Origin: Sulfurovaceae bacterium
Lineage (GTDB): Bacteria > Campylobacterota > Campylobacteria > Campylobacterales > Sulfurovaceae
Direction: 5' to 3'
Assembly (NCBI GenBank): GCA_028715055.1
Contig: JAQTLE010000002.1
Location: 124,001-188,000 of the forward strand
DNA length: 64,000 nucleotides
Positions 16,784 to 53,077 of the stretch are shown here, piece by piece. The position numbers and the translations under genes are program-made. How positions within the stretch are numbered: position 1 is the stretch's first letter; each line of letters opens with the position of its first letter. Under the pieces are notes generated by a model, which was given only the letters and a program-made list of their open reading frames with translations, had not been told where the DNA came from and searched no databases.

Positions 16784-17031
16784 AACAAAGTTTTTAAGCT
16801 CTAATTTATCATTTATATTTATAATATATTGTACTTATCCATAAAAATATTGAATTATATTTATGGATATTTAATACCAAAAAGCTTTTTAATGCCAACT
16901 GTTTTATCTCACAAATATATCATTTATTTTTCATATTATATTACTTTAACATAAATTATATTTAATTATTTTATAGATGTTTAATATAGGAAACTTTTTT
17001 AAAAGTAATTTTTATGATATAATTCCATCCA

Positions 17032-17373
17032 AGGTGCGATAGGTAGTTGCTATCGATTTATCGGTAGAGGAAAGTCCGAGCTACAAGTGAGACAAGACTC
17101 CACCTAACGGGTGGCCAGAGTAATCTGAGGGCAAGTGCAACAGAGAGAAGACTACCGCTAAAGCGGTCAAAGGTGAAAGGGTGGGGTAAGAGCCCACCGG
17201 TACCTGTGGTAACATGGGTAGCCAGGTAAACCCTGTCTGTAGCAAGAAGTATATGGTACAAGTCTCACATTTTAGTCAAGCTCGCTTGACGAGATACTTC
17301 GCTCGAGCCATGTGGTAACATATGGCCTAGATAAATAACTACCCACGACAGAACTCGGCTTATCGTCGCACCT
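17032..17373 (+). ncRNA. rnpB: RNase P RNA (bacterial class A)
   Basis: GAGGAAAGTCCGAGC and ACAGAACTCGGCTTATCG signatures; 5' aggtgcga pairs with 3' tcgcacct (P1). Confidence 0.93.
17359..17373 (+). repeat. attL core
   Basis: CTTATCGTCGCACCT, identical to 53063-53077. Confidence 0.9.
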
Positions 17374-17545
17374 GTCATATAATCATAACCTCCCATACAC
17401 TACTATATGCCCTGAAATACGGACTTTGAGCATTTTTCAACTCTTTACATTTTATACAAAATACTATACAATACCAAGCAGAAGTGTACCCAGAAGTGTA
17501 CCCATTTGGGTATTTTTGGAAATGGGTACACCCAAAGGGGTACAA

Positions 17546-25952: not shown

Positions 25953-26073
25953 CTATAGGCAATAACCTACTTTCCCATACTAGACAAGCATAGTATCATC
26001 GGCGATTAGAGGCTTGACTTCTAGGTTCGGGATGGATCTAGGTATTTATCCCTCTATCTATCTTCACCTATAG
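25953..26073 (-). rRNA. rrf: 5S rRNA (isolated copy inside the prophage)
   Basis: minus strand reads ctataggtgaag...ccatcccgaacctagaagtcaagcctctaatcgccgatgatac...tgggaaagtaggttattgcctatag; helix I ctatagg/cctatag and helix II tagagg/cctcta preserved. Confidence 0.85.
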
Positions 26074-45326: not shown

Positions 45327-47462
45327 ATGAGAACTATTATAGGAACACTGGAGAGGGTGGATGGGACACCGTCAGCGAACACGAAAATAACATTTACGCT
45401 GGTTAACGAAAGCAACAGAGTTATATCTAGCTTTATAGCTGAGACACATGAACAAGTTTATGGCTCTGCGGAAGTGACTACAGATGAAAATGGAGCGTTT
45501 AGCGTTTCGCTAGTTGAAAACACGCTTCTGTCTGATGAGACATATTATTTAGTCAAAACGGATAAGTCAGCAATACCTTCGTTTAGAGCAGCATTGGCAG
45601 CAGGCGCTGGAGATATAGATTGGTTAGAATTCAAAGCTAGTGGCGGCCCAATCGAGCCTGCGGTTTTAGACATCATCCAAACATATATCGATACCGCAGA
45701 AGCAGCAGCTACAATCTCTACAACCAAAGCAGGTGAAGCTTCTTTAGACGCAGAACAAACAGCTCTTGACCGAATAGCAACAGGCGAGGACAGGGTAGCT
45801 ACTGGACTTGACGCAGAACAAACAGCTCTTGACCGAATAGCAACAGGCGAGGACAGGGTAGCTACTGGACTTGACGCAGAACAAACAGCTCTTGACCGAA
45901 TAGCAACAGGCGAAGATAGAACCGCGTGTGGGGAATCTGCTCAAATAGTTTTAGACAATAAGCCGAACATTGACATCATTGCCGCTAACATAGATGTCAT
46001 AGAGAATCTATCCACGAACATAGATGAGATTATGGATGGAATAGTTTATACGATAGGCACAGCAGGACAAATAGGCTTTGGCGTTTCTCCAGCTAGAAAA
46101 GAGATATATGAAAAGTACGGGATGATACCTTTTGAGGGGCATACTAGCATGACTAGCCCGAACAGAGGTAAATATCTTCATGCGGCAAGTGGCTCTATAT
46201 TTTACTATATCCCAAAACATTACTATAAAACTACGGTAAATGAAAATCTATTTAGTGATGTCCCTATAGTCGGATATATACTAGATAGAAGCTTCATAAA
46301 TGCAGGAGTTGAGATAGAAGGTATATTCGTTTTTGGTTTTGGCGGCTCTAATAATGCTGGGAAACTAAGTGCTAGACAAGGATATGACCCAGTGAGCACA
46401 AATTCAGCTCACAATCCTATATCAGCTCTCACAGGAACTCCTGCCAACAACTATGGCGGTGCTTATAAGGCGGTAAAATCTTGTGACGCTAATGCTTGTG
46501 TGCAGACTGTGTGGGTAGATGCTATGCTAGCAAGACTTGCTATCGCGCATGGTAAATCAGCTACAACCCAAACCGCTTGTGCATATATGGATGTGAATCC
46601 TAAGCACCCAAAAGGGAATAACAATAACGCGCTCAAAGATGTTAACGATACTAGCGTGACTTTCACATCAAGCGGATATTCCAACTGTGCTCTGACTGGC
46701 TCAGGCGTTCCATTCGCTAAGACCACACATAATGGACAAGAGTGTGGTATCGCAGACCTTAATGGCAATATGTATCATGTGGCTGCTGGACTAACATACA
46801 AAGCAAGAACAGGGGCTACTGGCACATCTGGCACTAATGCAGTAGTTTTGACCGCTCATAAATATGCGGCAGGACAAAAAATAGCATTTGGCGGCACTCC
46901 TAGCACCGGGACTACATACAATACCGCATTATATATAGTCGATACTGTTGTGGATGCCAATAACTTCACTCTGACTACTAATTTGGAACGCAACATATTG
47001 GCAACGGATGGCATATATACGGGCAAAACCTTCTATATACTAAAAGAAAGCGTAGATATGACGGCAATCCTCGATGATAGCACTACCGCTGGAACTGGGG
47101 CATATGATATGAACTTATACGAACAGATAGATTTGTCTGATTTGATTTTTGATAATACCTTAATAAAATTAGGTAACGGCACAAATCAAGTGTACGGTTT
47201 TAGTACGGACAGAAGTAGTGCTGCATACAAGAGAGCTGCTATCGGGATACCTCTCGCAGGGGGAGTAAGTGCAGGGGGGACTACAGAGTTTGGGGATGAC
47301 GGATTATATAGATACCTCAGACACGACTTGGCTGTCATCGCCGGCGGCGCTTGGGACAATTCTTCCGCTGCCGGTGTGGGCAATGTGACTTTGTACCACT
47401 ATCGTACGGGGTCCGATAACGAGGTTGGGGTTCGCGCCTATATACCAGCGACCTTGTCATGA
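45327..47462 (+). CDS. DGR target: tail fibre with C-terminal C-type-lectin/FGE-like variable domain
   Basis: GIADLNGNMYHVAAG lectin/FGE motif; C-terminal VR in frame. Confidence 0.9.
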   Translation: MRTIIGTLERVDGTPSANTKITFTLVNESNRVISSFIAETHEQVYGSAEVTTDENGAFSVSLVENTLLSDETYYLVKTDKSAIPSFRAALAAGAGDIDWLEFKASGGPIEPAVLDIIQTYIDTAEAAATISTTKAGEASLDAEQTALDRIATGEDRVATGLDAEQTALDRIATGEDRVATGLDAEQTALDRIATGEDRTACGESAQIVLDNKPNIDIIAANIDVIENLSTNIDEIMDGIVYTIGTAGQIGFGVSPARKEIYEKYGMIPFEGHTSMTSPNRGKYLHAASGSIFYYIPKHYYKTTVNENLFSDVPIVGYILDRSFINAGVEIEGIFVFGFGGSNNAGKLSARQGYDPVSTNSAHNPISALTGTPANNYGGAYKAVKSCDANACVQTVWVDAMLARLAIAHGKSATTQTACAYMDVNPKHPKGNNNNALKDVNDTSVTFTSSGYSNCALTGSGVPFAKTTHNGQECGIADLNGNMYHVAAGLTYKARTGATGTSGTNAVVLTAHKYAAGQKIAFGGTPSTGTTYNTALYIVDTVVDANNFTLTTNLERNILATDGIYTGKTFYILKESVDMTAILDDSTTAGTGAYDMNLYEQIDLSDLIFDNTLIKLGNGTNQVYGFSTDRSSAAYKRAAIGIPLAGGVSAGGTTEFGDDGLYRYLRHDLAVIAGGAWDNSSAAGVGNVTLYHYRTGSDNEVGVRAYIPATLS
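45747..45914 (+). repeat. 63-bp tandem repeat, ~2.7 copies
   Basis: encodes DAEQTALDRIATGEDRVATGL repeats. Confidence 0.9.
47334..47438 (+). repeat. DGR variable repeat (VR)
   Basis: 89/105 identical to TR at 47921-48025; 14 of 16 mismatches at TR adenines. Confidence 0.95.
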
Positions 47463-47489
47463 GTGAACGATAGTGAACGGAGATAAAAC

Positions 47490-47885
47490 ATGGGCATAAA
47501 TAGCGAAGCGATTTTAAATCATAAGTTTTTGGAGATGGCAAAGCTGCTTAATGTATATCTCAATCATTTTCCAAAACATGAAAAATATGCACTCGCTAAT
47601 AATATTAGAAATACCGCGTACTGCATGTACGATCTTATCACTGAGTGTCAAAAAAGGTATTTTAAAAAAACATCATTGACGGAGCTTGATATCGTTCATG
47701 AGAAATTGAGAATGCAGATATATCTTGCAAACGAACTTGGATATTTTGGGTTCAAAGACGGGAAGGAGAGCCAACAGGCAAATAGTGTAAAAAGATTTAT
47801 AGCGCTAACCAAACTCATAGATGAACTTGGGCGAATGATCGGCGCATGGATCAATAAATTAAAAAATATGGCAAATTTTAAATGA
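47490..47885 (+). CDS. avd: accessory variability determinant (Avd), four-helix-bundle protein
   Basis: 131 aa, LNHFPKHEKYALANNIRNTAYCMYDLI; between target and RT. Confidence 0.88.
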   Translation: MGINSEAILNHKFLEMAKLLNVYLNHFPKHEKYALANNIRNTAYCMYDLITECQKRYFKKTSLTELDIVHEKLRMQIYLANELGYFGFKDGKESQQANSVKRFIALTKLIDELGRMIGAWINKLKNMANFK

Positions 47886-49147
47886 ATAACTTAGGGCAAC
47901 ATAGCAATATGAAAAATGAAGTCATCGCCGGCGGCAATTGGAACAATTCTTCCAATGCCGGTGTGGGCAATGTGAATTTGAACAACAATCGTACGAATTC
48001 CAATAACAATGTTGGGGTTCGCGACTTTATTTCCATGCCTGAAACATCAAGAGATGATACTGGAAATATAGGGGTATGTTGTCCTGCTAAAAGCGAAATC
48101 AAAAATACAAATAATCTTTTGAGTAACTTAGTTGAAAATCAGATTAAATCAAAACGAATAGGCAATTTATTTGAAAAAGCGTTTAGTGTAGAAAATCTAT
48201 ACCAGGCTTTTTTGGATGCTAGAAAAGGCAAAAGAAAAAAAAGAGCGACGCTGAATTTTGAGAAAAATCTAGGCACAGAGCTCTTGGATCTATATAGTGA
48301 GCTGCATGATGGGGATTATAAGACAAAACCATATAAGCAATTTAAAGTCTATGAACCCAAAGAGAGGGTAATCAATGCCCCTCATTTTAGAGACTTAGTG
48401 GTGCAGCATGCTATATATAGAGTTATTTATCCTATATTTGATAAGTCTTTTGCGGATACCAGCTATGCGTGTCGCAAAGGCGGGGGCACGCACAAGGCAA
48501 GTGCCTATACTCAAAAAGAGATGAGAAAGCATGACGGAGAGCTTTATTATGTGAAGCTTGATATTCGTAAATTTTTCTACAACATCGATAGAGAAATCCT
48601 GCGAAAACTTTTCGAGAAAAAAATAAAAGACAAAAAGTTTATAGAGATCATGATGCAGTTTGCAAATATGGACACGAGCAAAGGCATACCGATAGGTAAT
48701 CTTCTAAGCCAACTATACGCGCTGATATATATGAACCCCGTGGACCATTACGCAAAAAGAGAGCTAAAAGTGAAGTCATATGTCCGCTACGTAGATGATA
48801 TTGTGGCAATCGGGGTAACGCTTGATATTGCTAAAAATATAAAAAATAAAATAGAAAAATTCATACAAGATAAGTTGAACCTGGAATATTCTCACTGGAT
48901 GATCTCCAAAATAAAAAAAGGCATTAATTTTGTAGGGTACCGCACATGGAAAAGCGTGAAGTTTGTCCGGAAGCATAGTATGTACAAATTTAAAAAAGCA
49001 ATCAAAAAATCTCGTATTGAGTCAATAGTATCTCTGATAGGACACGCAAAGGGAACGGCGTCGACTTCGTATTTTAGATCACTGTTGGCTGAACATGAAA
49101 TTTTAAACCAAATACCAAAGAGGAGCCTAGCATGTTTAAATATGTAA
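47882..49147 (+). CDS. DGR reverse transcriptase
   Basis: LDIRKFFYNID, GIPIGNLLSQLYA (DGR-type motif 4), YVRYVDD catalytic motif. Confidence 0.96.
   Translation: MNNLGQHSNMKNEVIAGGNWNNSSNAGVGNVNLNNNRTNSNNNVGVRDFISMPETSRDDTGNIGVCCPAKSEIKNTNNLLSNLVENQIKSKRIGNLFEKAFSVENLYQAFLDARKGKRKKRATLNFEKNLGTELLDLYSELHDGDYKTKPYKQFKVYEPKERVINAPHFRDLVVQHAIYRVIYPIFDKSFADTSYACRKGGGTHKASAYTQKEMRKHDGELYYVKLDIRKFFYNIDREILRKLFEKKIKDKKFIEIMMQFANMDTSKGIPIGNLLSQLYALIYMNPVDHYAKRELKVKSYVRYVDDIVAIGVTLDIAKNIKNKIEKFIQDKLNLEYSHWMISKIKKGINFVGYRTWKSVKFVRKHSMYKFKKAIKKSRIESIVSLIGHAKGTASTSYFRSLLAEHEILNQIPKRSLACLNM
47921..48025 (+). repeat. DGR template repeat (TR)
   Basis: AAC/AAT-rich; offset 587 bp from VR; in frame with RT ORF. 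Confidence 0.95.
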
Positions 49148-49662
49148 CTTATACACCAGCGACCGACCAATACACCACACACTCTTTTGCAGAGTCAAAC
49201 GATAAATGCAAGGTACATAGATTTGATGTTCCGCTTGTATCTGTAGAGTGTGAAAACGAAAGTGACTTTAATGAGTTGATGGCAAGTCAAAATCCTATCA
49301 TCCAAGCAATTGAGATAACAAAAGAAGAGTTTGCAAGTGCGGTATCAGACAGCGCGCAAGTGCAAAGAATGTATGACAGAGCTAACGAGCTACTTAAAAA
49401 CTTAATGAAGCCTATTTCTAACAAATACTGTAAAGAGGAAAGGGATACTTGGGACAGTCAAAAAGAAGAAGCTAATGCTATTTTAGCAGGAGCTACTAAT
49501 ACAACAATATTAGGAACTTTAGCAACTGCCGAAGGAGCTACTATTCAAGAGTTTGCACAAGCCGTAGTGAGTAATAGAGCGAATTTTGAAGCGTTAAGTG
49601 CTAATGCTCTAGTGCAAAAAAGAGCTTTTTTGGCAGAGTTAAAAGCAGAGGTGGGGCTGTGA
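49132..49662 (+). CDS. tail fibre assembly-like/hypothetical protein
   Basis: position after fibre/DGR. Confidence 0.5.
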   Translation: MFKYVTYTPATDQYTTHSFAESNDKCKVHRFDVPLVSVECENESDFNELMASQNPIIQAIEITKEEFASAVSDSAQVQRMYDRANELLKNLMKPISNKYCKEERDTWDSQKEEANAILAGATNTTILGTLATAEGATIQEFAQAVVSNRANFEALSANALVQKRAFLAELKAEVGL

Positions 49663-53062: not shown

Positions 53063-53077
53063 CTTATCGTCGCACCT
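53063..53077 (+). repeat. attR core
   Basis: CTTATCGTCGCACCT followed by native rnpB T-tract. Confidence 0.9.

What the first reader, a model, noticed from the sequence alone, without database searches (positions are those of the whole stretch)
45327..49147. Complete diversity-generating retroelement mutating the prophage tail fibre
Target, VR, Avd-like gene, TR and RT all lie within 4 kb. The VR (47334-47438) closes the fibre ORF and aligns without gaps to the TR (47921-48025): 89/105 identities, and 14 of 16 mismatches fall at TR adenines (14 of 29 TR As differ, against 2 of 76 other bases). Both repeats end in an identical GTTGGGGTTCGCG block, which fits an initiation-of-mutagenic-homing region. 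The RT has the DGR-type IGNLLSQ motif and YVDD. Eleven of the 35 VR codons differ from the TR at one or more adenines, including AAT>GCT, AAC>TAC, AAC>CAC and AAT>TAT. DGR mechanism and the lectin-fold target are established from BPP-1; the call here is from sequence.
Basis: partly seen in the sequence, partly recalled or inferred. Interest (0 to 1): 0.92.

Follow-up and report, generated by a model that had tools for sequence, protein, structure and literature searches.

The report
Prophage tail-fibre mutator with fused template
A prophage in a Campylobacterota genome carries a complete, BPP-1-like diversity-generating retroelement that rewrites the tip of its tail fibre; this is a known kind of system, but in this lineage the RNA template lies inside the reverse transcriptase's own reading frame instead of between genes.

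Summary
The DGR is real. TR/VR alignment, Avd, DGR-type RT and C-type-lectin target all check out. One correction: the last of the 14 'A' mismatches (TR GACT / VR GCCT) is fixed in 56 of 56 scored loci, so it marks IMH*/IMH rather than mutagenesis; 13 of 28 other adenines differ. Across 62 related loci 949 of 990 TR/VR mismatches fall at TR adenines, and loci with identical TRs have VRs differing almost only there (18/18, 17/18, 16/17): the family homes mutagenically. The RT frame opens at an ATGA overlap with avd and runs in frame through leader, TR and spacer, in the frame VR has in the fibre, in all 13 loci of the closest clade. (2) An 11-bp helix between leader and spacer brackets TR, with strong covariation over 46 loci, plus a spacer hairpin. 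(3) A GATA-loop hairpin follows the fibre stop codon, as at BPP-1 target sites. The prophage sits in the 3' end of rnpB. Activity of this copy is inferred. It is a DGR with an unusual gene layout; whether the template is translated is untested.

The parts
45327..47462 (+). target gene: tail/neck fibre, 711 aa; last ~470 aa form an FGE-type C-type-lectin domain with VR at the C-terminus
   Evidence: phmmer aa 1-132 to neck fibre gp82N (8keg, E 4e-4); AlphaFold pLDDT 88, Foldseek top hit TaqVP 5vf4 E 7e-16, then Mtd; profile search of PDB 5vf4 E 1e-7
47334..47438 (+). variable repeat (VR)
   Evidence: 89/105 to TR, 14/16 mismatches at TR A
47424..47436 (+). IMH core GTTGGGGTTCGCG, followed by VR-specific GCCT (TR has GACT)
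   Evidence: GACT/GCCT fixed in 56/56 scored loci
47463..47478 (+). IMH-proximal hairpin GTGAAC-GATA-GTGAAC directly after the fibre stop codon; GRNA loop, stem with tandem G.A mismatches
   Evidence: such hairpins in 36/62 loci against 0.8 expected from shuffles; GRNA loop consensus from PMC3240598
47490..47885 (+). avd, accessory variability determinant, 131 aa
   Evidence: Pfam bAvd 2.5e-15, PHROG Avd of DGR 2.2e-19
47882..49147 (+). RT open reading frame, 421 aa, starts by ATGA overlap with the avd stop and runs through leader, TR and spacer; RT domain from about 48149
   Evidence: bRT 8ub7 E 3.6e-58 over residues 91-374
47893..47903 (+). 5' strand of helix P1, AGGGCAACATA
   Evidence: covariation over 46 loci
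47921..48025 (+). template repeat (TR), inside the RT frame, in the same frame as VR in the fibre
48011..48023 (+). IMH* core GTTGGGGTTCGCG, followed by TR-specific GACT
48025..48146 (+). structured spacer RNA between TR and RT domain; weak full-length match to Rfam RT-14 (25.9 bits, below the gathering score of 48.1)
48075..48085 (+). 3' strand of helix P1, TATGTTGTCCT, in the spacer
48113..48145 (+). spacer hairpin: outer stem AATCT/AGATT, AGTA...GAA internal motif
   Evidence: 5 of 5 outer pairs with changes on both sides, 93.5% of cells paired

Best explanation
A complete BPP-1-type diversity-generating retroelement in a siphovirus-like prophage. The operon fibre-avd-RT is transcribed; the stretch of that transcript from about 47893 to 48145 folds (P1 helix bracketing TR, spacer hairpin) and is bound by RT and Avd; RT copies TR with errors at adenines; the cDNA replaces VR in the fibre gene, guided by IMH and the downstream hairpin, so progeny phages carry altered fibre tips. 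In this clade the RT has no start codon of its own at the usual place, so translation most likely starts at the avd-overlapping ATG and passes through the template. Shown here: anatomy, adenine specificity, RNA covariation, frame conservation, predicted lectin fold. Inferred: transcription, cDNA synthesis, homing in this lysogen, translation through TR.
For: TR/VR pattern; Avd and RT families; 949/990 mismatches at TR A in 62 loci; pairs with equal TR and A-only VR differences; P1 and hairpin covariation, 94.8% of cells paired vs 68.6% shuffled, 199 double changes vs 62; IMH hairpin; CLec fold; frame open in 13/13 clade members with start at the avd stop, simulated probability of no stop 3.6e-5.
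Against: No second strain with the same TR exists in the data (within the genus only this genome has the RT at high identity), so activity of this copy is not shown. Two VR mismatches are at T, not A. Spacer amino acids are barely constrained (pN/pS 0.81), so the leader peptide itself has no evident function. L011, a fairly close RT relative, has stops between TR and RT, so the fused frame is not obligatory. The IMH hairpin stem is short and not GC-rich, unlike the published ones.
Confidence: 0.93

Rival explanations
1. The DGR is a decayed or dormant remnant: VR was diversified in the past but the element no longer works in this lysogen.
For: No same-TR strain available; two non-A mismatches; weak IMH hairpin.
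Against: All frames intact, RT motifs intact, TR/VR difference still almost only at A, conserved RNA helix intact.
Confidence: 0.12
2. The RT really starts inside or after TR (for example ATG 48035 or TTG 48119) and the open frame through TR is an accident, forced by the VR frame of TR and by shared ancestry.
For: Amino acids of the spacer nearly unconstrained (pN/pS 0.81); no ribosome-binding site is evident before 47882; the homologous RT domain starts at residue ~90.
Against: No start codon between TR and the RT domain is shared by the whole clade; only the avd-overlapping ATG/GTG and the ATG after P1 are conserved; all indels are multiples of three; stop-free chance 3.6e-5 under a star-tree simulation; VR-frame stops in the spacer are 28 against 79 and 141 in the other frames over 46 loci.
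Confidence: 0.3
3. The repeats are an ordinary duplication of the fibre end, diverged under selection, unrelated to the RT.
For: TR and VR lie 0.6 kb apart.
Against: Adenine-confined differences in 62 loci, and varying VRs on fixed TRs.
Confidence: 0.01

Closest known systems
Bordetella phage BPP-1 DGR (mtd-avd-TR-brt)
   Same: Gene order target-VR, avd, TR, spacer, RT; RT 35% identical; lectin-fold target with C-terminal VR; IMH and downstream GRNA hairpin; AGGGCAG/CUGUCCU complement around TR
   Different: In BPP-1 the TR lies outside brt and the VR-frame through TR stops 29 nt before brt; here TR is inside the RT frame. The IMH hairpin here has tandem G.A pairs and is AT-rich.
DGRs of Campylobacterota (MAGs assigned to Sulfurovum, Helicobacteraceae and Campylobacterales, and IMG/VR contigs): L005-L010, L013, L014, L026-L028, L054
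   Same: RT 63-75% identical, same order, same fused frame
   Different: Fibre N-termini and inserts differ; L011 and L012, 68-69% identical, lack the fused frame.
Rfam RF02921 RT-14 RNA
   Same: Weak full-length match over the spacer, including the AGUA/GAA hairpin
   Different: Score 25.9, below the gathering score 48.1; the match starts at the end of TR, so it does not contain the P1 strand upstream of TR.
TaqVP, Thermus aquaticus DGR variable protein (5vf4)
   Same: Best fold and profile match of the target's C-terminal domain
   Different: Here it is fused to a phage fibre N-terminus and carries an inserted small beta domain.

Membership tests
Diversity-generating retroelement | TR/VR pair with substitutions confined to TR adenines | tested here: met
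   14/16 mismatches at A (13/15 after removing the fixed GACT/GCCT site)
Diversity-generating retroelement | RT of the DGR type (IGNLLSQ, YxDD) | tested here: met
   GIPIGNLLSQ invariant in 17 relatives, YVDD; bRT nearest in PDB. No full RT tree was built.
Diversity-generating retroelement | accessory Avd-type gene | tested here: met
   Pfam bAvd above cut-off, PHROG
Diversity-generating retroelement | VR in C-type-lectin or Ig-like target | tested here: met
   AlphaFold + Foldseek to TaqVP and Mtd
Diversity-generating retroelement | IMH at VR 3' end and IMH* at TR 3' end | tested here: met
   shared GTTGGGGTTCGCG, then fixed GCCT/GACT difference
Diversity-generating retroelement | hairpin downstream of VR with GRNA loop | tested here: inconclusive
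   GATA loop and position fit, but the stem has tandem G.A mismatches and is not GC-rich
Diversity-generating retroelement | mutagenic homing observed | not testable with these tools
   No reads or same-TR strains for this copy; seen by comparison in relatives
Rfam RT-14 RNA | score above gathering threshold | tested here: not met
   25.9 vs 48.1 bits

The most novel reading that the evidence does not exclude
In this lineage the mutagenic template is itself translated: ribosomes coupled from avd read leader, TR and spacer as the N-terminus of RT, so one RNA serves either as message for RT or, when P1 and the spacer hairpin form and bind RT-Avd, as template. The P1 5' strand, followed (usually 15 nt after its GGG) by a conserved ATG that is mostly in the VR frame (38 of 51 scored loci), would make this a self-limiting switch, also used by more distant DGRs through an ATGA overlap with the RT start.
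Probability: 0.3. Interest if true: 0.6.

Novelty: new variant of a known kind. Interest (0 to 1): 0.4.

Why it matters
It adds a well-documented clade of prophage DGRs in Campylobacterota and, by comparison over about 60 loci, supports a long-range RNA helix that brackets the template as a conserved DGR part. If the template is translated, DGR expression and mutagenesis would be coupled in cis, a simple way to limit hypermutation that could be tested in a reconstituted reporter.

Tried and rejected
A first AlphaFold job with a wrongly cut target alignment gave pLDDT 46 and was discarded. Pfam gives no lectin family for the target; the fold had to be reached by model and profile. Rfam at gathering scores finds nothing at the DGR in 13 related loci or in the window's DGR. 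The second RT in the genome (C19) is not a DGR RT but a Drt3b-like defence RT. The excess of open VR-frame spacers (29 of 50, against 11 and 7 in the other frames) is suggestive only, because the loci share ancestry and the RNA itself is conserved. The Nature 2025 BPP-1 RNP paper and the 2017/2018 cDNA papers are not held, so whether helix P1 is already described for BPP-1 could not be checked; from memory the 2025 abstract says that upstream and downstream RNA are both needed, which makes that likely.

Full report
Observation. The reported repeats exist at the stated coordinates and are not chance: VR 47334-47438 and TR 47921-48025 match at 89 of 105 positions, 14 of 16 mismatches lie at the 29 TR adenines (hypergeometric p 7e-8), and the two others are T>G at third codon positions. 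The own genome has one TR and one VR only. The last A mismatch lies outside the shared 13-base block; TR has GACT and VR GCCT in 56 of 56 scored loci, so it is a fixed IMH*/IMH difference, leaving 13 of 28.

Parts. Avd is confirmed by Pfam and PHROGs. The RT is nearest, among solved structures, to BPP-1 bRT (8ub7, E 3.6e-58), far ahead of group II intron RTs; GIPIGNLLSQ is invariant in 17 relatives. The last 474 aa of the fibre model well (pLDDT 88) and match TaqVP, a solved DGR variable protein of the FGE-type lectin fold, then Mtd (PMC6328139); a sequence profile reaches 5vf4 too. The fibre's first 132 aa weakly match a neck fibre (8keg), so 'tail or neck fibre' is the safe name.

Prophage. 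Integrase, CI-like repressor, DnaB helicase, terminase, portal, major head protein, tape measure, endolysin and adenine methylase are present. A 15-bp direct repeat CTTATCGTCGCACCT at 17359-17373 and 53063-53077 marks the likely ends; the left copy lies at the 3' end of an RNase P RNA gene, 17031-17378. The prophage that holds the DGR thus spans about 17.36-53.08 kb.

Family and activity. Searches gave 21 IMG/VR loci and 51 genome loci. In 62 of 67 analysed loci (window included) a TR/VR pair was found by a search that required an adenine share of at least 70% among mismatches; within these, 949 of 990 mismatches are at TR adenines (the selection inflates this somewhat). Beyond that selection, loci with identical TRs have VRs that differ at TR adenines and almost nowhere else: 18/18, 17/18, 16/17. 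So the family is active; for this copy activity is inferred.

RNA. Helix P1 pairs 47893-47903 (upstream of TR) with 48075-48085 (spacer). It was noticed by eye, then found at the same place in most loci and counted on a 46-sequence MAFFT alignment made without reference to it: together with the outer stem of the spacer hairpin, 94.8% of cells pair against 68.6% after shuffling, 199 cells are changed on both sides against 62, and sliding by one to three columns destroys it. BPP-1 has a cognate AGGGCAG/CUGUCCU. Rfam's RT-14 matches the spacer over its full length but below threshold. That the BPP-1 spacer folds and recruits bRT-Avd, and that a motif in the 3' end of avd ends reverse transcription, is established (PMC12875486); whether this very helix has been described I could not check.

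Frame. The RT frame starts by ATGA overlap with avd and runs in frame through leader, TR and spacer; TR is in the frame that VR has in the fibre. All 13 loci of the nearest clade keep this, with a start codon at or beside the avd stop; 'in most cases intergenic' is the published rule for TR (PMC8144416). With the observed numbers of substitutions placed at random, ten lineages would all stay stop-free with probability 3.6e-5, assuming independence. Amino acids of the spacer are hardly constrained (pN/pS 0.81; TR 0.19; RT 0.29), so the frame, not the peptide, seems to matter. In more distant loci the VR-frame ORF through TR and spacer often ends at an ATGA overlap with the RT start; VR-frame stops in the spacer are 28 against 79 and 141 in the other frames. 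This suggests translational coupling through the template, but shared ancestry and RNA conservation are confounders.

IMH hairpin. GTGAAC-GATA-GTGAAC follows the fibre stop codon (47463-47478). The loop fits the GRNA consensus (PMC3240598); the stem has tandem G.A mismatches. Comparable hairpins occur in 36 of 62 loci by a strict pattern, 0.8 expected.

Verdict. It is a known kind of system with an unusual layout in this lineage. Host: Campylobacterota, inferred from the nearest relatives; the genus was not identified.

Noticed in passing
window 25954-26071, minus strand: A 5S rRNA gene (Rfam 71.1 bits) lies inside the prophage with a terminator-like hairpin. It is the only 5S over threshold in this assembly; short 90%-identical pieces sit at the ends of contigs C1 and C2, probably the host copies. 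No match in 50,697 phage records. A phage-borne 5S rRNA would be unusual.
   Followed up: partly
window 17359-17373 and 53063-53077: Prophage attachment repeat CTTATCGTCGCACCT; integration in the 3' end of the RNase P RNA gene rnpB (17031-17378).
   Followed up: yes
L002 (genome contig C19): A second RT in the same genome is a Drt3b-like defence RT (PADLOC E 2.6e-173), on a short contig.
   Followed up: partly
window 47439-47453 and 49150-49164: The fibre's 3' end (TATATACCAGCGACC) nearly repeats at the start of the gene after RT (TATACACCAGCGACC); perhaps a trace of cassette insertion.
   Followed up: no
window 46824-46985 (fibre aa 500-553): A small beta domain resembling the endosialidase end barrel (weak, E 0.007) sits inside the lectin domain; relatives L006 and L010 appear to have it, while L005, nearly identical to L006 in RT, does not.
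   Followed up: partly
L049, L060, L061: One Psychrobacter genome holds three related DGR copies, two with identical TR and VR.
   Followed up: no
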